DNA from: Streptomyces sp. 840.1
Lineage (GTDB): Bacteria; Actinomycetota; Actinomycetes; Streptomycetales; Streptomycetaceae
Length of the DNA: 64,000 nucleotides
Reading direction: 5' to 3'
Assembly (NCBI RefSeq): GCF_003751445.1
Contig: NZ_RJUU01000002.1
Location: forward strand, 1,302,001-1,366,000
Shown: positions 54,070 to 64,000 of the stretch, one piece after another
Layout: each line of letters opens with the position of its first letter
Position numbering within the stretch: position 1 is the first letter of the stretch
Program-made: the position numbers and the translations under genes
The notes under the pieces: generated by a model
Told to the model about the DNA's origin: nothing
Database searches by the model: none
Seen by the model: only the letters and a program-made list of their open reading frames with translations

Positions 54070-56916
54070 TCAGCAGTTGCCCGCCGGACGCTCCCGCGTC
54101 ACCAGGTCGGTGTAGCCGGTCGTGCCGTCCAGCCACACGACCCGCTTGCCGGTGTCGGCGGACGGGAGTATCTGGTCACCGCGGTTGCAGGAGACGCGCT
54201 GCGCGCCGCCCTTGCCGTCCGGGGCCACCTGGTACAGCTTCGGCATGGTCTCGTTGGCGTAGCTGGTGGCCATCGGGACGCTCATCACGGTGACCGCGTC
54301 GTCGGAGGCCGTCAGCGAGTACGTGAACACCGGGTCCTTGCTCGCCTCGGGCAGCACGGTGATGGGGTCCGAGCCGTCGAGGGCGGAGCGCTCCACGGAG
54401 GCCCGGCCCTCGTCGGTCAGGTCCTGGTCGAGGATCCAGAAGACGCCGTCGTCGGTGATGGCCGTCTGGCCGATCCCCATCGCGGTGTTCTTGTCGACGG
54501 AGGGCATCAGCTTCTTGGCCCCGGTGTCGGTGTCGAAGACCTCGACGCCGAGCTTGTAGCCGTCGCTCTCCGCCCACAGCTTGGCGTACGCGATCTTCCC
54601 GTCCTTCACCGACGGCATGGCGGTGGAGAACTGGTAGCCGCCGCCGTCCACCTTGCCGATGGCACCGGTCCTGATGTTGATGTACCCGACGTGCCCGCCG
54701 CCCGTGTACGGGTCCATCTCGGTGTAGACGAGGTAGTCGCCGTCGATGGCGAGCGCGGAGACATCCGTCCCGGAGGCGCCCACGACCTTGTCGATACCAC
54801 CGGAGACCGGATGCACGTGGAACTTGATGCTCGTCGCGGTGTACTCCGCCCAGGCGACGGTCTTGCCGTCGGTGTCGGCGTACACGTTGTAGTTGCCGTT
54901 GTTGCCGCTGACCAGGGTTGTGCCGCCCTTGCCGCTGGTCCTGCCGGTCCAGACCGAGTACGGTTCGCTGCCGTCCTCGTTGGTCCGCGAGGTGGCGTAG
55001 CGCCCGCTGCCCGCGCCCGCCCCGGTGCCGGCGATGTTGACCTTGCCGAGCAGCGTGTCGCTGTCGACGCCGATCGCCTTCTCCCAGCCCGGCACGATGC
55101 CGTGCGCGTCGAAGGAGCGCTTCACGAGCTTCAGCTGCGCCTTGGAGACCCCCAGCTCCTGTGCTGCGGCGATGACCGCGGCGCGGCCCTCGGTGAAGCC
55201 GTCCAGGGGCGTCATGTACGCGGTCAGCGCGCGGTAAACGATCTTGTCGGCCAGGTCGGCGCCGAGGTCCTGGCGCATGTCCCACAGGGCGCCGGAGAAG
55301 ATCGTGGAGTTGAGGTGGACGCCGCCGTTGTCGGAACGGTAGGAGGCCCCGAGGAAGTTCTTCGACGTGGTCGCGCCGTCGTCCAGGTCGCGCAGCGCGC
55401 ACTCGCGGGGTCCCGCCGTGGTGCACAGGTCCTCACCCAGCAGCGCGGCGTCCGGGTCGTCCATGGAGATGTGATTGGCCGCCAGGTCGATCGCGTTGCC
55501 GAAGTAGTCGGCCAGCGCCTCGTTCATGGCGCCGGACTGGCCCGCGTACACCAGGTTCGCACTGTGCTCGATGACGCCGTGGGTCATCTCGTGGCCCACC
55601 ACGTCGGTGTCGGCGGAGAAGGTGCGGTAGTCGCCGCCGCCCTGCCCGTACACCATCTTGCTGCCGTCCCAGAAGGCGTTGTTGTACGGCCGGCCGTTGC
55701 TCACGACGCCGACGAGGGAGTAGATGAAGCCGCCCTGGCCGTCGAGGCTGTCCCGGCCGAACGTCGAGTGGTAGTAGTCGTAGACCTGGCCGGCCGCCCA
55801 GTGGGCGTCCACCGCGCCGGAGTTCGTGTACTCGGGACCGAGCTCCGGGCTGGCGGGCCGGAACGTCTTGATGCCGCTGGGCCAGGCGCCGGACGCCGAG
55901 GAGGCCTCACGGCCGCGGGCGTCGTAGGTGGCGATCATGACGTTGCTGTCGCCGGCGGCGCGGCGCGAGTAGTCGATCGTCTGCAGGGCGCCGGAGGTGT
56001 CCCGGTAGAGGTTGACCTCGGTGCTCTCGCCGTTGTACCGGGTGCCGGTGCCCTTGACCACCAGTTCGTCCGACGCGGCGGTGCCCGCGTCGGGCACGCT
56101 GCCCGTCGCACCCGCCGCGCCGGCTGCCGCGGTGCCGGCGCCGAACGTCTGCAGGGCGCTGTACTGGAGCAGCGGGTAGCCGGAGTGCGCGTCTACGTAG
56201 ACCTCCTGCGCCAGCGGCTCACCGGTCGCCGGGTCGACACCCGTGACCGTGATGTGGCGGGTCAGCACGCCTTCGCCCTGCGGCAGGATCGTCAGCCCGT
56301 TCGACTTGCCCGTCAGCGCGGGGGCGGTCGGGTCCTTCTCGGTGGCCGGGGCCCGCAGCGGGGCGTCGCCGAGACCGGACGTCACCGCGCCGACGGCCCG
56401 CGAGATCGCCGTCTTCTCGGACACCGCCGCCGTGGTCGTGGCGACCTTCAGGTCCGTGAAGTACTTGCCCGACGTGCCGGTGACGGTCCGTCGGCCGTCA
56501 CCGTCGGTCATACGTACGACATACTGGCCGCCGAGTACGGTGACGCCCTTGTACTTCTGCTGGAGCCGGACGGTCTCGTCCTTGCCGGTCTTCTGGGTGG
56601 CGACGGCCGTGAGGTCGCGCCCCGGATCGGCGATGTGGTAGCGGCTCTTCCTGGTGGCCAGGTGCCCGCGCGCCGCGTCGGCCGCGCTGCCGGTGGCAGC
56701 CGCCCTCTCGCTGAGCCCGGTGACGAGGGCCGGGGTGTCCGTCCCGGTGCCGGACGCCGCGACGACGGGGCCGGGCTCCGTGTCGTCGGCGTGGGCGCCG
56801 GACACACCGGCGAGCATCATGCCGGCGGTGGCCAGCAGGACCGCTATGCCCTGCCCGGGGCGTATGCCGGAAGCCGGCGAGGTGCCCGATGATCTCCGAC
56901 GTGCTGAAGTACGCAA
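54070..56916 (-). CDS. Secreted M4 (thermolysin-type) metalloprotease with C-terminal beta-propeller-like extension
   Basis: This exported neutral protease (about 948 residues) has a signal-like N-terminus (SGIRPGQGIAVLLATAGMMLAG, cleavage near GAHA). A propeptide with FTP/PepSY features follows (RKSRYHIADPGRDLTAVA). The catalytic domain carries HEMTH at 442-446 (zinc and catalytic Glu), with the third zinc ligand Glu466 in NEALADYFGN. The last ~390 residues do not belong to M4; they contain repeated W/Y-rich beta motifs (NYNVYADTDGKTVAWAEY, DYLVYTEMDPYTGG, GVFWILDQDLT) like a TolB-type propeller. The start is uncertain: TTG 56916 has GAGAGG upstream; GTG 56937 is the alternative. Confidence 0.88.
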   Translation of the reverse strand: MRTSARRRSSGTSPASGIRPGQGIAVLLATAGMMLAGVSGAHADDTEPGPVVAASGTGTDTPALVTGLSERAAATGSAADAARGHLATRKSRYHIADPGRDLTAVATQKTGKDETVRLQQKYKGVTVLGGQYVVRMTDGDGRRTVTGTSGKYFTDLKVATTTAAVSEKTAISRAVGAVTSGLGDAPLRAPATEKDPTAPALTGKSNGLTILPQGEGVLTRHITVTGVDPATGEPLAQEVYVDAHSGYPLLQYSALQTFGAGTAAAGAAGATGSVPDAGTAASDELVVKGTGTRYNGESTEVNLYRDTSGALQTIDYSRRAAGDSNVMIATYDARGREASSASGAWPSGIKTFRPASPELGPEYTNSGAVDAHWAAGQVYDYYHSTFGRDSLDGQGGFIYSLVGVVSNGRPYNNAFWDGSKMVYGQGGGDYRTFSADTDVVGHEMTHGVIEHSANLVYAGQSGAMNEALADYFGNAIDLAANHISMDDPDAALLGEDLCTTAGPRECALRDLDDGATTSKNFLGASYRSDNGGVHLNSTIFSGALWDMRQDLGADLADKIVYRALTAYMTPLDGFTEGRAAVIAAAQELGVSKAQLKLVKRSFDAHGIVPGWEKAIGVDSDTLLGKVNIAGTGAGAGSGRYATSRTNEDGSEPYSVWTGRTSGKGGTTLVSGNNGNYNVYADTDGKTVAWAEYTATSIKFHVHPVSGGIDKVVGASGTDVSALAIDGDYLVYTEMDPYTGGGHVGYINIRTGAIGKVDGGGYQFSTAMPSVKDGKIAYAKLWAESDGYKLGVEVFDTDTGAKKLMPSVDKNTAMGIGQTAITDDGVFWILDQDLTDEGRASVERSALDGSDPITVLPEASKDPVFTYSLTASDDAVTVMSVPMATSYANETMPKLYQVAPDGKGGAQRVSCNRGDQILPSADTGKRVVWLDGTTGYTDLVTRERPAGNC

Positions 56917-57006
56917 GGTGTTGCCTCTCGTAGGCACCGACGGTGGTTGTGGGGGACATGCAATACCGGGGTTCGCCCCTGAACAATGAGTTGCCGGTGC
57001 CGATTT

Positions 57007-57020
57007 GTGGACGTGTCCAC
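57007..57020. promoter_or_regulatory. Palindrome GTGGAC-GT-GTCCAC in the protease/HTH divergent promoter
   Basis: Perfect 6-bp arms with a 2-bp centre lie 35 bases before the HTH gene start and 91 bases before the protease start. It is a likely dimer site for the divergent HTH regulator or another repressor. Confidence 0.5.
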
Positions 57021-57054
57021 TTGTGTGGCAGCAGGTTCGACGGAGGATCGGGAC

Positions 57055-58059
57055 GTGCGGAAGAACGCAGCTGACTGGCAGGCCCTCGGCCTGGACGGCA
57101 AGGAACTGGGTCTCTACGAGGCCCTGTTGAATCCCACCGGACACCGTGATCCGGAAGCGCTCGCCGCCGCGCTCGCACTGACACCGGCTCAGTTCGACGA
57201 AGCGTGTGCGCGGTTGGAGAAGCTCGGCTTCATCCGGTCCGCCCCCGCCGGCAGACTTCCCGCAGCCGTCAGTCCCGCCATCGCGATCCGCAACCGGATC
57301 CACCTGCGCAAGGCCGAACTCCTGCGCACATCGGCCGAACTGGAGACGCTCACCGCGTCCGTGGGCCGCCTGGCCGCGGAGATGCTGGGCGGGATGGCGG
57401 CTGCCCGGACGACCGGCATCGAGACGGTGCGCGGCCGCCTGGCCATAGCGGAGCGCGTCGCCTCCCTGCTGGCCTCGGCGACCAGCCGGGTCAGCCTTCT
57501 CGACCGGCCGCCGTACGCCGCGAGCGACCCCGCGGGCACGCCCGCGCCGCTGGCCGTGGGCGATCTGGTCGCGCGGGGCGTGGAGGTCCGGGTGGTGGTG
57601 GACCGTGAGGGGCTGAGCTTCCCCGGCCGCGCCAGGGGACTGGGCGAGCTGGCCGGACAAGGGGTGCAGATCCGGCTCGCGGCAGACCTGCCGACCAAGC
57701 TGATCACCGTGGACGACCAGGTGACCCTGCTGCCACCGACCGACGTCGCCGATCCGACGGCCGCCGCGCTCGTCGTCAGCGACGCGCTGCTGGGAAACGC
57801 TCTGGTGCCGCTGTTCGAGGCGGTCTGGGAGCGCTCCATGCCCATCGGACCCGGCGGCTCGGGAGAACTGGACCACGAGCGCAGCGAGTTGCTCACCCTG
57901 CTCGCCTCGGGCCTGAAGGACGAGGCGATCGCCCGAAGGCTCGGGGTCCACGTGCACACGGCCCGCCGCCGGATCAGCCGCCTGCTGGTGGAGCTGAACG
58001 CCGAGACCCGGTTCCAGGCCGGGGTCCAGGCGCTGCGCAGGGGGTGGCTGACGCCCTGA
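57055..58059 (+). CDS. HTH regulator with TrmB-like N-terminus and LuxR-type C-terminal HTH
   Basis: This 334-residue regulator begins with a winged-helix segment of the TrmB type (GLDGKELGLYEALLNPTGHRDPEALAAALALTPAQFDEACARLEKLG). It has a middle domain resembling phospholipase-D/TrmB effector regions (VSLLDRPPYA, GVEVRVVVDREGL) and ends in a LuxR-type helix-turn-helix (LLTLLASGLKDEAIARRLGVHVHTARRRISRLLVEL). The two-HTH layout is common in actinobacterial regulators of unknown ligand. The start is GTG after ACGGAGGAT. It is divergent from the M4 protease gene, so protease control is the obvious hypothesis. Confidence 0.82.
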   Translation: MRKNAADWQALGLDGKELGLYEALLNPTGHRDPEALAAALALTPAQFDEACARLEKLGFIRSAPAGRLPAAVSPAIAIRNRIHLRKAELLRTSAELETLTASVGRLAAEMLGGMAAARTTGIETVRGRLAIAERVASLLASATSRVSLLDRPPYAASDPAGTPAPLAVGDLVARGVEVRVVVDREGLSFPGRARGLGELAGQGVQIRLAADLPTKLITVDDQVTLLPPTDVADPTAAALVVSDALLGNALVPLFEAVWERSMPIGPGGSGELDHERSELLTLLASGLKDEAIARRLGVHVHTARRRISRLLVELNAETRFQAGVQALRRGWLTP

Positions 58060-58458: not shown

Positions 58459-59700
58459 TCAGGCGGCGCGGCGGCCCGTGTGCAGCGGAGTGCCGCCGGC
58501 GAGGCCCTCCGGGTCCAGCGCCAGCGACAGGGCGGCCGTCGCGCCCACGTCCGCCAGGCTGTGCGCGTCCGGGAGGAGTTCCACGCCGTCCGCGCCGGGC
58601 CGGTGGATCAGCACCGGGACGTACTCCCGGGTGTGGTGGGCGTGACCGATCGTGGGGTCGTTGCCGTGGTCGCCGGTGACGATCAGCCGGTCGCCGTGGT
58701 CAGCGAGCAGTGCCACGAGCCCGGCGAGCCCGGCATCCACCTGTTCCAGCAGCTGTCCGTACCGCTCCGTGTCCTGCTGATGCCCTGCCAGGTCCGTCTC
58801 CTGGACGTTCGCGACCACGAGGGCGTCGCCCTCGGCGCGTACCGCGTCCAGGGTGTACGACAGGACGTCGGCCGTGGCGACGGCCGGATGGCGGGTGGCC
58901 GCCTCGCACACCAGGATGTCGGCCGCCTTGCCCACCAGGGTGACCGGGATCCCGGCCCGTGCCGCCAGCTCGGGGAGCTGGCGGGTGTGGTCGAGCGGGG
59001 CGCCCAGGTGCTGCACCTGGAGGCCCCCGTTGCGGTAGAAGCCGGTGGCGGGGGTGTCGAGCCCGACCGTCCCCCCGTCGCCGGGGCGGACGAAGTCGCG
59101 GAGCGGGCCGTCCGCGTGGCCGCCGACCGCGATGACCCGCGCGACCGGGGCCACGTTGCGCACGGTGCGGGCGACGGCGAGGATTCCGCCGGGCCCGTCG
59201 AACGGGAGGTCGTCCAGGCGGCCCGAGGCGTTCCAGTTGATGCCGGGATCGGCCTCCAGGTTGTCGTGGACCAGGACCGCCCCGTCGACCACGAGCAGCG
59301 GCCTGCCGTCCAGGCGCTCGACCCGGTGACCGGCCGCCGTGAGCGCGTCGGACACCTCGTCCAGGTGGTCGGCGAGCCGGGCCACCGTCACCCGGCTGAA
59401 GTCGGCGCCCATCATGGTCTGGTGGCCCGCGAAGGTGTCGGCGCCCGGATAGCCGAGCGCGGCCCTGCCCGCGGCGACGGGCAGATGCGTGCGTCGCACC
59501 AGGTCCGGATGCTGGTGGACGAGGCCGAGCCCCAGCGCCCCGAGCACCGGCAGGCGCAACGGCCGCCCGAACGCGGCGCGGCAGTGGTCGAGTACGTGTC
59601 CGCAGGTGTCGGCGGTGAGGTCGCCGGGGCGCAGGCTGCCCGCGTCGGGCATGGCGCCGACGCCGAATCCGTCGATGACGACAATGACGGTCTTGGCCAT
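58459..59700 (-). CDS. Phosphopentomutase-like protein (YhfW family)
   Basis: This 413-residue enzyme is of the alkaline-phosphatase superfamily, phosphopentomutase branch. It has KTVIVVIDGFGVGAMPDAG at the N-terminus (first metal-site Asp), AGHQTMMGADFSR near 91-103 (Thr-type nucleophile region), and the later metal segments NVQETDLAGHQQD and TGDHGNDPTIGHAHHTRE. YhfW homologues are encoded in yhf operons and are thought to move a phosphate on an unknown sugar phosphate. It is the last gene of the leftward five-gene set (YhfT, PHP, YhfS, YhfX, YhfW). A 10-bp gap separates it from YhfX. Confidence 0.88.
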   Translation of the reverse strand: MAKTVIVVIDGFGVGAMPDAGSLRPGDLTADTCGHVLDHCRAAFGRPLRLPVLGALGLGLVHQHPDLVRRTHLPVAAGRAALGYPGADTFAGHQTMMGADFSRVTVARLADHLDEVSDALTAAGHRVERLDGRPLLVVDGAVLVHDNLEADPGINWNASGRLDDLPFDGPGGILAVARTVRNVAPVARVIAVGGHADGPLRDFVRPGDGGTVGLDTPATGFYRNGGLQVQHLGAPLDHTRQLPELAARAGIPVTLVGKAADILVCEAATRHPAVATADVLSYTLDAVRAEGDALVVANVQETDLAGHQQDTERYGQLLEQVDAGLAGLVALLADHGDRLIVTGDHGNDPTIGHAHHTREYVPVLIHRPGADGVELLPDAHSLADVGATAALSLALDPEGLAGGTPLHTGRRAA

Positions 59701-59710
59701 GAGGTGCTCC

Positions 59711-60874
59711 TTACAGGGCTCGGCCGTGTGCGTCGTAGAGCCCGTTCAGCCGGGGGGCGCCCGAGGCGAGCCCGGAGACGACGGCGACGGTCGAGCGGGT
59801 GACGAAGATCTGGGTACGGAAGGCGAGCAGCGCGGTGTCCCCGACCCGGGCGTCCGCCGCGCGGCCGGGCGCTTCGAGCAGCCGGTAGTAGTCGATGTTC
59901 TCGGCGGGCGCGTCCTGCACGCCCAGGCGGACGCCCGTGCGCGGCAGGAGGGCGCTGCGGATGTGCGCACGGCTGTAGAAGCCGCCGCCGAATATCGCGG
60001 GACGGCCGTCGTCGAGGGTGTGGGCGACCTCGCTCACGTACACGTACGCGGGCTGCTCGGGCTGGGCCGGATCGACGGCGTGCAGCGGGGTCGTGCCGGT
60101 GAGGGCGTGGCCGGGCTCGCCGTGGGTCGCTCCCAGTTCGGCGAGCAGCGGGAGGGACGCCATCGAGGTGGCGCTGGGGGCGCTGAGCTTGAGGTCGTGG
60201 TGCCCGCGCGCGGCCAGCAGTTCTCGGGCCCGGATCGCCAGGCCGAAGTTGGGGGTCGCGGCGGGCACGCCCGTCGCCGGGTCGCACAGCACGCAGGGGA
60301 AGGCGGTAACGCCCGCGATCCGGATGCCGTCCAGCGCTTCGGCCTCCTTGGCGAAGGCGTCCAGACGCTCGAGCGGCACGCCGCCCTCCTGGCCGGGGTA
60401 GACGTCGCCCTCGGCGCCTGCGAGCCGGATCAGGACGGGCTGGACGAAGCCCAGTTCGCGGGCCGCGTCCGAGACGGCACGGGCGTTGGCCAGGTCAAAG
60501 ACCGTCACGGTCTCCGGACGCCAGGCCAGCATCTCGGGCAGCGCGCGCCGCGGGATCTGGACCAGGTGCCCGAGGTTGCCGGGCCGCGCCCCGGCGGCGT
60601 GCAGGGTACGGGCCTCCGCCGGGTCGATGGCGGCCGAGCGGGGGATGTGCCGGGCGATGGCCCGGATCAGTTCGGGGTTGCGGCCCAGCTGCTTGACGAC
60701 GAACCAGAGGCTGATGCCCAGGCGGCCGGCCTCGGCCGCGAGCAGCGCGGCGTTGGCCTCGACGGCGTCCAGGTCGACGACGTAGGTGTCGGGCGGGATG
60801 TCGCCGTTCCGGTGCAGCGCGGCCGCTGCGTCCACGAGCCCGGGATTGCGGGTGAGTACGGTGTCGAGGAACAC
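59711..60874 (-). CDS. PLP-dependent alanine-racemase-like protein (YhfX family)
   Basis: This 387-residue protein has an alanine-racemase N-terminal TIM barrel. DTYVVDLDAVEANAALLAAEAG precedes the PLP-lysine segment WFVVKQLGRNPEL (Lys near 59), and PNFGLAIRARELLAAR and the phosphate-binding GDTALLAF lie later. YhfX-like proteins act with YhfS and YhfW on an unknown amino-compound. The start is GTG 60874, with AAGGAC upstream; the gap to YhfS is two bases. A longer open frame upstream overlaps YhfS and is rejected. Confidence 0.87.
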   Translation of the reverse strand: MFLDTVLTRNPGLVDAAAALHRNGDIPPDTYVVDLDAVEANAALLAAEAGRLGISLWFVVKQLGRNPELIRAIARHIPRSAAIDPAEARTLHAAGARPGNLGHLVQIPRRALPEMLAWRPETVTVFDLANARAVSDAARELGFVQPVLIRLAGAEGDVYPGQEGGVPLERLDAFAKEAEALDGIRIAGVTAFPCVLCDPATGVPAATPNFGLAIRARELLAARGHHDLKLSAPSATSMASLPLLAELGATHGEPGHALTGTTPLHAVDPAQPEQPAYVYVSEVAHTLDDGRPAIFGGGFYSRAHIRSALLPRTGVRLGVQDAPAENIDYYRLLEAPGRAADARVGDTALLAFRTQIFVTRSTVAVVSGLASGAPRLNGLYDAHGRAL

Positions 60875-60876
60875 GG

Positions 60877-62001
60877 TCAGTCGTCCTTCGGGTCGTCCAG
60901 GGCGGCGAGCGAGCGGCGCAGGATGTCGATGACGAGGTCCGCGCCCGCCCGCATCGGGTTGATGCGTACGGTCCAGTCGGCCAGCTCGGGGGAGTCGTCC
61001 AGCGCGGAGCTGGACATCCGGTAGAAGAGCGGCGCGATCTCGTACCTGGAGTTGGAGCCGACGGGGTAGGGGGCGGCGCCGAACCGGGCGGCGACGGCGG
61101 GCAGCCCGGCCGCGACGGGCCGGTCGAGCCGCACGAGCAGGCAGCGGTCCTGGGCGTTGGCGATGCGCACCTCGGCCACCCCGTCCACCTCGCCGGCCGC
61201 CAGCCGCTGCGCGACCTCGGCGCCCACCCGCGACTGCACGGACCACATCACGGGCACGTGGGTGAGGGCGCGCAGGGCGTCGAGCGCCTGATGGCCCTGG
61301 ACCTGCCCGCCGCCGGAGTAGTTGTCGCGGCGGACGTGCTCGACCAGGTCGCCGGCGCCGACGACGAGACCGACGCCCTCCGGGCCGTGCAGCTTGAAGA
61401 GGGAGAAGCAGGAGGCGTCGGCCCCCAGCTCCACACCGGCGGCGGGCGTGCGCATCACGGCGTAGTTGTCGTCGACGATCGTGCGGACCCCGGCGGCCCG
61501 GCAGGCCGCGATGACTCCGGCCGGATCGTAGGAGTCCGCGAGCCGCTGACGCGTGTGCTGGATGTACGCCCACAGGAACCGGCCGGAGGCCAGGGCCTCG
61601 CGCAGCGCCGCGCCGTCGTTGAAGTCGGCCTCGACGGTGTCCACGCCGATGCCCCGCAGGGTGACCTCGGTGGTGCGGTAGACCGGGGCGCGGTGGATGA
61701 GCAGCGGGTCGCCCGCCCGCACGGCGGCGTTGAGGGCGGCCCGGATCGCGCCGGTGCCCGCGCCCTGGACGAAGGCGGCGTCCTGCGCCCCGAAGAAGTC
61801 CGCCAGCACGGCCTCCACCCGGGCGGTGGTGCGCGGCCGGCCCAGACCGGGGACGACGCCCGCGTCGGACGAGAACAGCTGCTGGCCCTCGAAGTGCGCG
61901 GCGGTGGCCTCCAGCAGCCGGAACTGCCGGGTGACGGCGTCGTCCAGACCGACGGTCGCCAGCGGGTGTGTGACGGGAAGGACGGGAGGTACGGGGCTCA
62001 T
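60877..62001 (-). CDS. PLP-dependent fold-type I aminotransferase-like protein (YhfS family)
   Basis: This 374-residue PLP enzyme of the cysteine-desulfurase/cystathionine-synthase fold begins PPVLPVTHPLATVGLDDAVTRQFRLLEATAAHFEG. It has AFVQGAGTGAIRAAL near 80 (PLP phosphate loop) and the aspartate/lysine segments VRTIVDDNYAVMR and LFKLHGPEGVG (PLP lysine). YhfS is a conserved yhf-operon enzyme of unknown substrate. It lies one base after PHP and two before YhfX, so translation is coupled. It is one of several PLP-type enzymes handling what is probably an amino-sugar or amino acid derivative. Confidence 0.88.
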   Translation of the reverse strand: MSPVPPVLPVTHPLATVGLDDAVTRQFRLLEATAAHFEGQQLFSSDAGVVPGLGRPRTTARVEAVLADFFGAQDAAFVQGAGTGAIRAALNAAVRAGDPLLIHRAPVYRTTEVTLRGIGVDTVEADFNDGAALREALASGRFLWAYIQHTRQRLADSYDPAGVIAACRAAGVRTIVDDNYAVMRTPAAGVELGADASCFSLFKLHGPEGVGLVVGAGDLVEHVRRDNYSGGGQVQGHQALDALRALTHVPVMWSVQSRVGAEVAQRLAAGEVDGVAEVRIANAQDRCLLVRLDRPVAAGLPAVAARFGAAPYPVGSNSRYEIAPLFYRMSSSALDDSPELADWTVRINPMRAGADLVIDILRRSLAALDDPKDD

Positions 62002-62002
62002 G

Positions 62003-62959
62003 TCAGTTCTCCTCCACGCTCGCGCCGGTCAGGAAGCGCAGCGGGTTGCGGCGGGTCAGCAGGTCGATCAGATCGTCGTCGGCGCCCGCCGCGCGCAGCT
62101 CGGGCAGGAAGCTCCGGAACAGGTGCCCGTAGCCCTGGCCGCCCTCGTCCAGCAGGTAGCCGTGGCGGGAGATGTCGCAGCTGAGCAGGGCCCGGTCGGC
62201 GTGCCCGGCCTCCACCAGGGCGAGCAGCAGCCGCAGCCGGGTCCGGTCGCTCCGGTAGGCCGATTTGCCCACGGTGTCGAAGGCGACGTACGCCCCGCGC
62301 GCCGCGAGTTCCCGGTGGACGCCCGGGTCGTCGAGCAGGTCCTGGTGGCCGATGCTGACGCGGTGGGCGGGCAGCCCCTCACCGGTGAGCAGGTCCAGCT
62401 GGGCGAGCCCGCCCCGGCCCAGCTGCGCGTGGGTGGCGAGGGAGAGCCCGGTGGCCCGCGCGGCCCGTGCGCCGGCCCGCAGCACCTTGGCCTCGGGAGC
62501 CGTGGGGACGTCCCCGTGGCTGCCGATCTCGCCGAGGACGCCGGGCAGGATGCCGGTCGTGCCGATGCCGTCCTGGATCTCGCGGACGAGGACCTCGGTC
62601 AGCTGCTCCACGTCGGCGGTGTCGATCTCCGGGGTGTGGAACGGCTCGTAGTACCAGCCGGTCGCGGCGACCACCGCGACCCGCGACTGCCGGGCGATCT
62701 CCGCGAGGGCGGCGACATCGCGCCCCATGCCCCGGCAGGTCAGCTCGACGACGAGGGAGAGCCCGAACTCCTCCCGCAGCGCGCTCAGCTCGGCGGTGAC
62801 GGCCGCCGTGTGGCGCCGGGGGTCGAGGACGGCCGCACCGTCGCCCCGCTGGTCCAGATCGAGGACGAGGTGCTCGTGTGCGAGGGCCGGGCCGCGTACC
62901 GAAGCGGCCTGGATCTCGCCGGTGACGGTGCGCAGGGTGTGCGGAGCGGGGTGGTTCAT
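62003..62959 (-). CDS. php: Phosphotriesterase-homology protein (PHP / YhfV family)
   Basis: This 318-residue (beta/alpha)8 metal enzyme has the HxH metal motif LAHEHLVLD near 29-37 and a glutamate in VLGEIGS at the bridging position (PHP enzymes use Glu where phosphotriesterase has a carbamylated Lys). Further metal ligands lie in LATHAQLG, SIGHQDLL and LLSCDISRHGYL. PHP members in yhf operons probably hydrolyse a lactone or phosphoester intermediate. The start ATG 62959 has AAGGAACC upstream. It lies one base before YhfS. Confidence 0.88.
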   Translation of the reverse strand: MNHPAPHTLRTVTGEIQAASVRGPALAHEHLVLDLDQRGDGAAVLDPRRHTAAVTAELSALREEFGLSLVVELTCRGMGRDVAALAEIARQSRVAVVAATGWYYEPFHTPEIDTADVEQLTEVLVREIQDGIGTTGILPGVLGEIGSHGDVPTAPEAKVLRAGARAARATGLSLATHAQLGRGGLAQLDLLTGEGLPAHRVSIGHQDLLDDPGVHRELAARGAYVAFDTVGKSAYRSDRTRLRLLLALVEAGHADRALLSCDISRHGYLLDEGGQGYGHLFRSFLPELRAAGADDDLIDLLTRRNPLRFLTGASVEEN

Positions 62960-63049
62960 CGTGGGGTTCCTTCTACGTGTACGGGCCCGGTCCGGCCGGC
63001 GGCCTCGCGGCCCCGGCACGCGGGTGGACAGGTCCCGGTCCCGGGGGTG

Positions 63050-64000
63050 TCAGCCCTTGACCGGGGTGAACAGATCGAGCCAGTACAGGATGTTGAGCAG
63101 GATGCCGCCGATGATCACGGCCGCGGGTGCGGCGGCCATCTTCACGACGGGGCGGCCCATCGCCTCGTTCAGCAGGTAGAGCCCGCCGACGACGAGGATG
63201 CCCAGTCCGCCGCCCATCGCGTTCGCGGCCATCAGCGAACCGAAGAGGATCGCGAGCTGGAGGGTGTCACCGATCGCGCTGCGCAGGTGTTCGGAGGAGT
63301 CGCGGACGCTGGGCAGCTTGCCGAGGACCCGGCCGATCCAGGAGAGGGCCAGCACCTCGGCCGCGAACACGAGCGCACCGACGAGAGCGGCCAGGAACGG
63401 GTTCGGCATGAGGTAGCCGATCGGGTACACCAGCGTGAATCCGGCGATCCCGTACGCCCCGGAGGCGAGTGCGGTGGTCGCGATCAGCGGGATGAAGCCG
63501 AACACCCGGTAGAAGTCGACCTGGGCCGCCTCCGAGTACTGCCCCTTCGCGATGAGGAAGCTGGTGGCCTCGCCGCCGCCGAATATGTGCATCTGGGCAA
63601 GCACACAGACCCCGGCCCCGAGCACCATGAACAGCGGCAGGTACCTGCGCAGCCGGGCCGCGCTCGCGCTGAACAGCGACGCCATCGGGTCGTCCTCCAG
63701 GACGATCTCCTCGACGCCCGCCGCCCGGTCCGCCCGGCGCTGCCGGACGTCCTTGGCGACCGCGAGCCCGATGAGCATCAGCACGCCGACGGCCATGGCC
63801 AGCGCTCCGGCGAACATGTTCGGCCACAGCTTCATGGTCATGACGACGAGGGCCAGTTCGAGGACGCCCGCGATACCGCCCCACCGGCGGCCGAACTGCT
63901 TGGTGATGGCGAGCACCGGGAACAGCGAGAACAGGAACAGGATCGGCGTCGACATCTGCTGCATCGCGGTCAGGAAGTCGACCGGCAGGTCGTGGGCGAC
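63050..64000 (-). CDS. YhfT-family integral membrane transporter (5' truncated by window)
   Basis: This is the C-terminal ~316 residues of a polytopic membrane protein with about eight membrane helices visible, opening in-window near DLPVDFLTAMQQM. Notable segments are FPVLAITKQFGRRWGG, a cytoplasmic charged loop (VAKDVRQRRADRAAG), VFGFIPLIATTALASGAYGIAG and VIIGGILLNILYWLDLFTP. It matches the YhfT layout of E. coli yhf operons, presumably the importer of the pathway substrate. The start lies beyond the right edge; a YhfU-like partner and a regulator, if present, would be there too. The next gene, PHP, follows after 90 bp. Confidence 0.83.
   Translation of the reverse strand, partial: VAHDLPVDFLTAMQQMSTPILFLFSLFPVLAITKQFGRRWGGIAGVLELALVVMTMKLWPNMFAGALAMAVGVLMLIGLAVAKDVRQRRADRAAGVEEIVLEDDPMASLFSASAARLRRYLPLFMVLGAGVCVLAQMHIFGGGEATSFLIAKGQYSEAAQVDFYRVFGFIPLIATTALASGAYGIAGFTLVYPIGYLMPNPFLAALVGALVFAAEVLALSWIGRVLGKLPSVRDSSEHLRSAIGDTLQLAILFGSLMAANAMGGGLGILVVGGLYLLNEAMGRPVVKMAAAPAAVIIGGILLNILYWLDLFTPVKG

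What the first reader, a model, noticed from the sequence alone, without database searches (positions are those of the whole stretch)
58459..64000. yhf-type operon (YhfT-PHP-YhfS-YhfX-YhfW): conserved catabolic pathway of unknown substrate
Five leftward genes with gaps of 1, 2 and 10 bp among the last four encode a transporter, a phosphotriesterase-homology hydrolase, two different PLP enzymes and a phosphopentomutase-like enzyme. This is the gene set of the E. coli yhf operon, for which I know no defined substrate. The chemistry implied (import, hydrolysis, PLP-dependent steps, phosphate transfer) suggests use of a phosphorylated or lactonised amino compound. The order here (T, PHP, S, X, W) is compact and could be complete apart from genes beyond the right edge.
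Basis: partly seen in the sequence, partly recalled or inferred. Interest (0 to 1): 0.72.

Follow-up and report, generated by a model that had tools for sequence, protein, structure and literature searches.

The report
Complete yhf catabolic operon in Streptomyces
This is a complete Streptomyces version of an eight-gene E. coli operon whose purpose we could not find described, and the genes that join it in other bacteria suggest that it feeds an amino sugar into central metabolism.

Summary
The five genes are real, at the stated places and in the stated families. The operon is complete beyond the right edge: rest of yhfT, then yhfU (DUF2620), yhfY (PRD) and yhfZ (regulator). This is the E. coli yhfZYXW-php-yhfUTS set in another order (Z-Y-U-T-php-S-X-W). 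All eight families occur in 21 of 21 Streptomyces loci examined and, with losses, in Bacillota, Fusobacteriota, Enterobacterales and Vibrionaceae. Four results bear on function. (1) Glucosamine-6-phosphate deaminase (nagB) adjoins the operon in 6 of 137 loci, in several arrangements. (2) YhfU is predicted to have the RpiB isomerase fold, its invariant cysteine lying in RpiB's C-x-T-G-x-G loop. (3) YhfY keeps an invariant PRD histidine, and PTS genes HPr (2 loci) or EI (1) adjoin the operon. (4) Streptomyces carries two conserved operator-like sites. Best reading: a PTS-sensed pathway that imports an amino-sugar derivative, hydrolyses it, works on it with two PLP enzymes and a phosphomutase, and passes a hexosamine phosphate to NagB. 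The substrate is not identified. No functional study was found in the held library.

The parts
58459..59700 (-). yhfW, phosphopentomutase-like mutase (413 aa)
   Evidence: Metalloenzyme PF01676 9.5e-32; NF009049 458.8 bits; core catalytic residues kept in 31 of 31 relatives, Thr/Ser nucleophile position 26 T and 5 S
59711..60874 (-). yhfX, PLP enzyme with an alanine-racemase-type N-terminal domain (387 aa, GTG start)
   Evidence: YhfX-like_C 1.4e-24, Ala_racemase_N 1e-15; solved relative 4kbx E 3e-78; K64 of the 390-aa reading invariant in 32 of 32
60877..62001 (-). yhfS, PLP enzyme of aminotransferase V / Cys-Met type (374 aa)
   Evidence: YhfS-like_C 2.4e-42; solved relative 4j8l E 1.4e-97; K203 and D177 invariant in 26 of 26
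62003..62959 (-). php, phosphotriesterase-family hydrolase (318 aa, ATG start)
   Evidence: PTE PF02126 1.4e-62; six metal-ligand positions identical in 30 of 30 relatives
63050..64000 (-). yhfT, membrane protein, part inside the window; continues to 64384. Beyond the edge (window numbering extended; L009 + 56000): yhfU 64428-64784, yhfY 64840-65226, operator-like site 65246-65270, yhfZ 65322-66260, promoter/operator-like site about 66268-66292
   Evidence: PF10797 6.5e-108 in the window part, 4.7e-153 whole; neighbours

Best explanation
A complete, patchily spread catabolic operon that brings in an amino-sugar derivative and delivers a hexosamine phosphate to glucosamine-6-phosphate deaminase. 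Proposed order (inferred): YhfT imports the compound with its partner YhfU, an RpiB-fold protein. The metal hydrolase PHP opens a lactone, ester or phosphodiester. YhfX and YhfS act on the amino-acid-like part by PLP chemistry. YhfW moves a phosphate on the amino sugar, for example from C1 to C6. NagB, encoded beside the operon in some hosts and elsewhere in many others, deaminates the product to fructose-6-phosphate. YhfZ binds a ligand and controls two operator sites; the PRD protein YhfY reports PTS phosphorylation state. Shown: gene set, order, families, conserved active-site residues, recurrent nagB linkage, conserved operator-like sites. Inferred: substrate class, step order, phosphate position, every catalytic activity, the regulatory wiring.
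For: nagB is 6 of 78 adjacent same-strand non-core ORFs against 1 of 1430 other non-core ORFs in 137 loci, p 1.1e-7, after X, after W, between W and U, or before Z; all six pass the nagB cut-off of TIGR00502. One further locus (L137) has an AgaS-family sugar isomerase gene near the operon. In Bacillota nagB is over cut-off in 22 of 22 yhf+ and 7 of 18 yhf- genomes (p 1.4e-5). YhfW keeps the phosphopentomutase core but its middle region does not align. YhfU: RpiB fold. YhfY: PRD profile hits, H51 invariant in 28 of 28; HPr in 2 and EI in 1 adjacent place. In Photobacterium a protein follows yhfW whose tested member carries a CBM5/12 module, a type often chitin-binding (recalled).
Against: No direct biochemistry. 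nagB adjoins only 6 of 137 loci, and not the window's operon. In Fusobacteriota nagB presence does not differ: 15 of 16 yhf+ against 22 of 24 yhf-. The Bacillota comparison is not matched for phylogeny or completeness. The nagB adjacency test was made after nagB had been noticed. EI alone is not significant (p 0.052). Whether the Streptomyces host encodes nagB or PTS genes was not searched. The roles of YhfU and YhfS are not explained well by this scheme.
Confidence: 0.38

Rival explanations
1. A pentose pathway. YhfW is a true phosphopentomutase and YhfU a relative of ribose-5-phosphate isomerase; together they turn ribose-1-phosphate, freed from a ribosylated amino compound by PHP and the PLP enzymes, into ribulose-5-phosphate.
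For: YhfW passes NF009049, named phosphopentomutase; YhfU has the RpiB fold.
Against: YhfW is far below the DeoB cut-offs (123.4 against 341.2 bits) and its middle region does not align with phosphopentomutase. YhfU lacks any conserved His or Arg. nagB recruitment is unexplained.
Confidence: 0.15
2. Use of a phosphorylated or lactonised amino acid without a sugar. PHP opens it, YhfX epimerises it, YhfS eliminates or transaminates it.
For: Two PLP enzymes and a hydrolase of a family that includes lactonases. Acid phosphatase genes follow yhfT directly in L048, L054, L057 and L066.
Against: nagB linkage and the sugar-phosphate character of YhfW and of the YhfU fold.
Confidence: 0.14
3. A pathway for glycated amino acids (Amadori or Heyns products). 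NagB or a SIS protein acts as the deglycase, and the PLP enzymes process the released amino acid.
For: In E. coli yhfS lies beside the fructoselysine operon frlABCDR; nagB and one SIS gene recur as partners.
Against: The frl neighbourhood is not kept in other lineages' loci that I read (not counted). No kinase or FrlB-type deglycase is among the core families; a phosphomutase is not expected in such a pathway.
Confidence: 0.12
4. Recycling of cell-wall or teichoic-acid material: amidase, serine hydrolase and racemase remove aminoacyl parts, and the amino sugar goes to NagB.
For: Amidase-signature gene in 10 of 26 Bacillota and 9 of 17 Fusobacteriota loci; beta-lactamase-family gene between php and yhfS in five fusobacterial loci.
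Against: These partners are absent from the 21 Streptomyces loci (amidase 0 of 21) and from the gamma-proteobacterial loci (amidase 0 of 73); no muramic-acid enzyme was recognised.
Confidence: 0.1

Closest known systems
E. coli K-12 yhfZYXW-php-yhfUTS (b3383-b3376)
   Same: The same eight gene families, one strand, compact
   Different: Order: E. coli Z-Y-X-W-php-U-T-S; here Z-Y-U-T-php-S-X-W, the order of many Bacillota and Fusobacteriota loci apart from their inserted amidase gene
RpiB / LacAB sugar-phosphate isomerases (for YhfU)
   Different: No conserved His or Arg; about 25 residues shorter; sequence similarity too weak to be significant by itself
Phosphopentomutase DeoB (for YhfW)
   Same: Metal-ligand positions and Thr nucleophile motif
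   Different: Middle (cap) region, which holds the sugar in phosphopentomutase (recalled), does not align; below the DeoB cut-offs
Phosphotriesterase-family lactonases (for PHP)
   Same: Same Pfam family and metal-ligand positions; weak hit to a phospho-furanose lactonase model, 45.4 bits against a cut-off of 630
   Different: Nearest solved relatives are phosphotriesterase homology protein 4lef and 1bf6, for which no substrate was found here
D-glucosaminate / Dga-type amino-sugar acid catabolism
   Same: PLP chemistry on an amino-sugar-derived acid with PTS import (recalled)
   Different: Different enzyme families; only looked up by title and abstract

Membership tests
yhf operon | All eight families yhfZ, Y, X, W, php, U, T, S together on one strand | tested here: met
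yhf operon | Clustering conserved in other genomes | tested here: met
   137 loci, five groups, with losses of S, W and others
RpiB isomerase (YhfU) | RpiB fold | tested here: met
RpiB isomerase (YhfU) | Cys in the C-x-T-G-x-G loop | tested here: met
   Cys52 in 50 of 50; aligned with RpiB
RpiB isomerase (YhfU) | Conserved His (ring opening) and Arg (phosphate binding), roles recalled | tested here: not met
   No His or Arg at 90% or more in 50 sequences. YhfU is therefore not filed as an RpiB-type isomerase by function
Phosphopentomutase (YhfW) | Metal ligands and Thr/Ser nucleophile | tested here: met
   31 of 31 and T 26 / S 5
Phosphopentomutase (YhfW) | Score over the DeoB equivalog cut-offs | tested here: not met
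   TIGR01696 123.4 bits against 341.2; NF003766 135.2 against 256
PRD regulatory domain (YhfY) | Profile similarity to PRD domains | tested here: met
   Pfam 22.5 bits, just under the cut-off of 23; alignment profile finds LicT PRD at 1.8e-11 and six further PRD-type proteins up to 0.0015
PRD regulatory domain (YhfY) | Phosphorylatable His | tested here: inconclusive
   H51 and R58 invariant in 28 of 28; phosphorylation itself not testable
PTS permease (YhfT + YhfU) | YhfT has an EIIC fold | tested here: inconclusive
PTS permease (YhfT + YhfU) | YhfU is an EIIB with phospho-Cys after the first strand | tested here: not met
NagB (partner genes) | Over TIGR00502 cut-off | tested here: met
   Six of six adjacent proteins, 293.6 to 410.9 bits against 236.9
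PHP / phosphotriesterase family | Metal-ligand residues | tested here: met
   H29, H31, E145, H178, H206, D263 in 30 of 30; roles recalled

The most novel reading that the evidence does not exclude
YhfT and YhfU are a new kind of phosphotransferase permease. YhfU, an RpiB-fold protein that lacks the conserved isomerase His and Arg but keeps the Cys loop, carries phosphate on that Cys. It receives it from HPr, perhaps through the PRD histidine of YhfY acting as a phosphocarrier, and phosphorylates the amino-sugar substrate as YhfT imports it. This would explain why the phosphomutase and NagB have phosphorylated substrates though no kinase is among the core families, why yhfU lies directly upstream of yhfT in 134 of 137 loci, and why HPr and EI genes join the operon in three loci.
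Probability: 0.13. Interest if true: 0.9.

Novelty: new member of a known kind. Interest (0 to 1): 0.55.

Why it matters
The yhf operon is in the E. coli K-12 reference genome, and its YhfX, YhfS and PHP families have solved structures, yet no function for it was found in the held library. The comparative results make the question testable. They name a substrate class (amino-sugar phosphates), a first enzyme to assay (YhfW with hexosamine phosphates, coupled to NagB), a likely fold class for a domain of unknown function (DUF2620), a sensor input (PTS through the PRD protein) and DNA sites for a regulator binding test.

Tried and rejected

Genome-wide nagB presence: a difference in Bacillota, none in Fusobacteriota. 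Literature, held library only: 'yhf operon' 0 papers; DUF2620, PF10797, PF10941 and family names 2 papers, incidental; yhfW/S/X, yhfT/U/Z with frlR, PTE homology terms, YhfX, YhfU: in the rows listed no functional study of this operon; many hits are other uses of the letters, among them unrelated B. subtilis genes. Searches listed only 20, 20 and 10 of 64, 100 and 92 papers. Of PMC4448311 and PMC7513527 I saw passages; all other papers only as search listings with abstract starts. A D-glucosaminate dehydratase idea for YhfX was looked up (listing) and dropped. Simple sigma-70 and terminator scans found none, and the repeat finder missed the operator; it was read by eye output and then examined. 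re-drew the phylum and gave no new positive beyond its own centre. The first script read a file that was not there and was rerun.

Rows dropped before counts: alignments used dereplicated subsets (YhfU 50 of 111 candidates, YhfT 43 of 118; others from the lists, further thinned by hand). Of 26 Streptomyces positives, 20 regions were fetched besides nothing else but the window's own (G000, counted among the 26, is L009), so 21 of 26 were read. Genome contigs returned 80 of 484 relatives. Some of the 137 loci repeat or overlap: L022 and L151 seem to be one plasmid, L010 and L024 are both E. coli, L023 and L087 are one species, L079/L089 and L081/L095 overlap. Presence counts are for the whole fetched locus, so W in L089 and L095 belongs to the neighbouring copy and php in L088 is a partial hit at the locus end.
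Full report
OBSERVATION. The window belongs to an 8.84 Mb genome, G000, at contig C2:1302001-1366000. Its YhfU is 92% identical to Streptomyces proteins. The five genes are at the stated places with gaps of 1, 2 and 10 bp. Family searches confirm each one. I fetched the sequence beyond the edge as L009, where window coordinate = L009 + 56000. yhfT is 444 aa. Upstream of it, on the same strand, follow yhfU (DUF2620, E 2.1e-41), yhfY (PRD, 22.5 bits, just under the cut-off of 23) and yhfZ (YhfZ_C 5.3e-57, HTH_41 8.3e-13). The next gene, an MFS transporter, points the other way. The operon is yhfZ-Y-U-T-php-S-X-W.

ACTIVE SITES. PHP keeps H29, H31, E145, H178, H206 and D263 in 30 of 30 relatives, the positions of the metal ligands of phosphotriesterase homology protein (roles recalled; alignment). 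YhfW keeps D10, D303, H307, D344, H345 and H356 in 31 of 31 and T or S at 89 (26 and 5), matching the phosphopentomutase core; its middle region gives no confident alignment. YhfX keeps K64, aligned with an alanine racemase lysine; beyond 4kbx its nearest solved relatives are alanine racemases and D-threonine aldolases at weak E-values (5.8e-5 to 6.5e-4). YhfS keeps K203 and D177 and aligns with Cys/Met-type PLP enzymes. The enzymes look catalytically competent; none was assayed.

PARTNERS. Among 1508 non-core ORFs in the loci, nagB is 6 of 78 adjacent same-strand ORFs and 1 of 1430 others (p 1.1e-7; a test made after nagB had been noticed). The loci are L088 Vibrio comitans (between W and U), L096 Thalassobacillus and L101 Pullulanibacillus (after X), L140 and L224 (after W) and L156 (before Z, 137 bp); L225 has it one gene away. 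The different arrangements argue for repeated recruitment. All six pass TIGR00502. L137 has an AgaS-family SIS gene upstream, with one ORF between, 415.7 bits, under that model's cut-off of 529.2. Whole-genome test: nagB over cut-off in 22 of 22 yhf+ and 7 of 18 yhf- Bacillota, and in 15 of 16 yhf+ and 22 of 24 yhf- Fusobacteriota (p values): support in one phylum, none in the other, and not matched for kinship. Other partners: HPr after W in L098 and L145 (p 0.0026) and EI after W in L092 (p 0.052); an amidase-signature gene in 9 of 17 Fusobacteriota and 10 of 26 Bacillota loci, with invariant K60, S109, S111 and S133 in 13 aligned but only weak Pfam scores (one under, one over the cut-off); a beta-lactamase-family gene between php and S in five fusobacterial loci; acid phosphatase genes after yhfT in four enteric loci; and in four Photobacterium loci, directly after W, a protein whose tested member carries CBM5/12.

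REGULATION. YhfY aligns with PRD domains (LicT 1.8e-11) and keeps H51 and R58 in 28 of 28. Upstream of yhfZ the Streptomyces loci share a block like CTTGTCA-n-TATCCAGAATCCTGTTTACTGT that ends 6 to 8 bases before the start codon, while the sequence further upstream diverges; the core is recognisable in 21 of 21, and L177, L178 and L180 lack the TTGnCA part. It holds an imperfect inverted repeat, in the host CAGTATCCAG-AATC-CTGGTTACTG. I read it as a promoter with an operator in the spacer and a leaderless transcript (inference). A second copy lies in the Z-Y gap shortly before the yhfY start: best match 18 to 22 of 25 bases in 18 of 21 loci. L176 scored 12 because my called start was misplaced, but the end of the site is visible; L177 and L178 scored 11 and 12 and seem to lack it. 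Whether the sites occur elsewhere in the host genome was not searched. The YhfZ C-terminal domain has a solved relative, 2ozz.

MECHANISM. The parts fit a catabolic operon sensed by its ligand (YhfZ) and by the PTS (YhfY), with import by YhfT/YhfU, hydrolysis by PHP, PLP chemistry by YhfX and YhfS, phosphate transfer by YhfW and disposal of a hexosamine phosphate by NagB. Families, residues and linkages are shown; substrate and order are inferred. I rate the amino-sugar reading 0.38, with pentose, sugar-free amino acid, glycated amino acid and wall-recycling readings as rivals.

NOVELTY. The gene set is known as uncharacterised genes; this is another member. Not found in the held library are a function for the operon, the RpiB-fold assignment for DUF2620, the nagB and PTS linkage and the operator pair. 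Most subscription journals are missing from that library, so a published function cannot be excluded.

Noticed in passing
window 56986-58059 (+) and the minus-strand frame ending at 54070: A helix-turn-helix regulator (HTH_23 25.1 bits) lies convergent to yhfW. The neighbouring minus-strand frame reads like a secreted M4-type neutral protease by its HEMTH motif (recalled, not searched).
   Followed up: partly
L009 12815-16610 (about window 68815-72610, beyond the edge): An IclR-type regulator beside an OPT-family transporter and an S-Me-THD (DUF917) protein on the other strand: another small uptake cluster, not part of the yhf operon.
   Followed up: no
L023 7411-11486; also L070, L075, L079, L081, L086, L087, L089, L093, L095, L103: A PTS EIIC related to the one in L023 lies near the yhf operon in 11 Vibrionaceae loci, with a DUF7916 gene in 9 of them; in L023 a porin-type gene is also there.
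   Followed up: partly
L100 13855-16038; related genes in L075, L079, L081, L054, L048, L057, L089, L095: A large protein without a Pfam match over most of its length, ending in a CBM5/12 module in L100, lies next to the operon in five loci and near it in four.
   Followed up: partly
L089 and L095 (Photobacterium): A second yhf copy with only yhfZ, php, yhfU and yhfT, a few genes from a larger copy on the same contig: a natural minimal set.
   Followed up: no
window 58459-59700: NCBIfam NF009049 names YhfW phosphopentomutase although it fails the DeoB equivalog cut-offs; the name may mislead annotation.
   Followed up: yes
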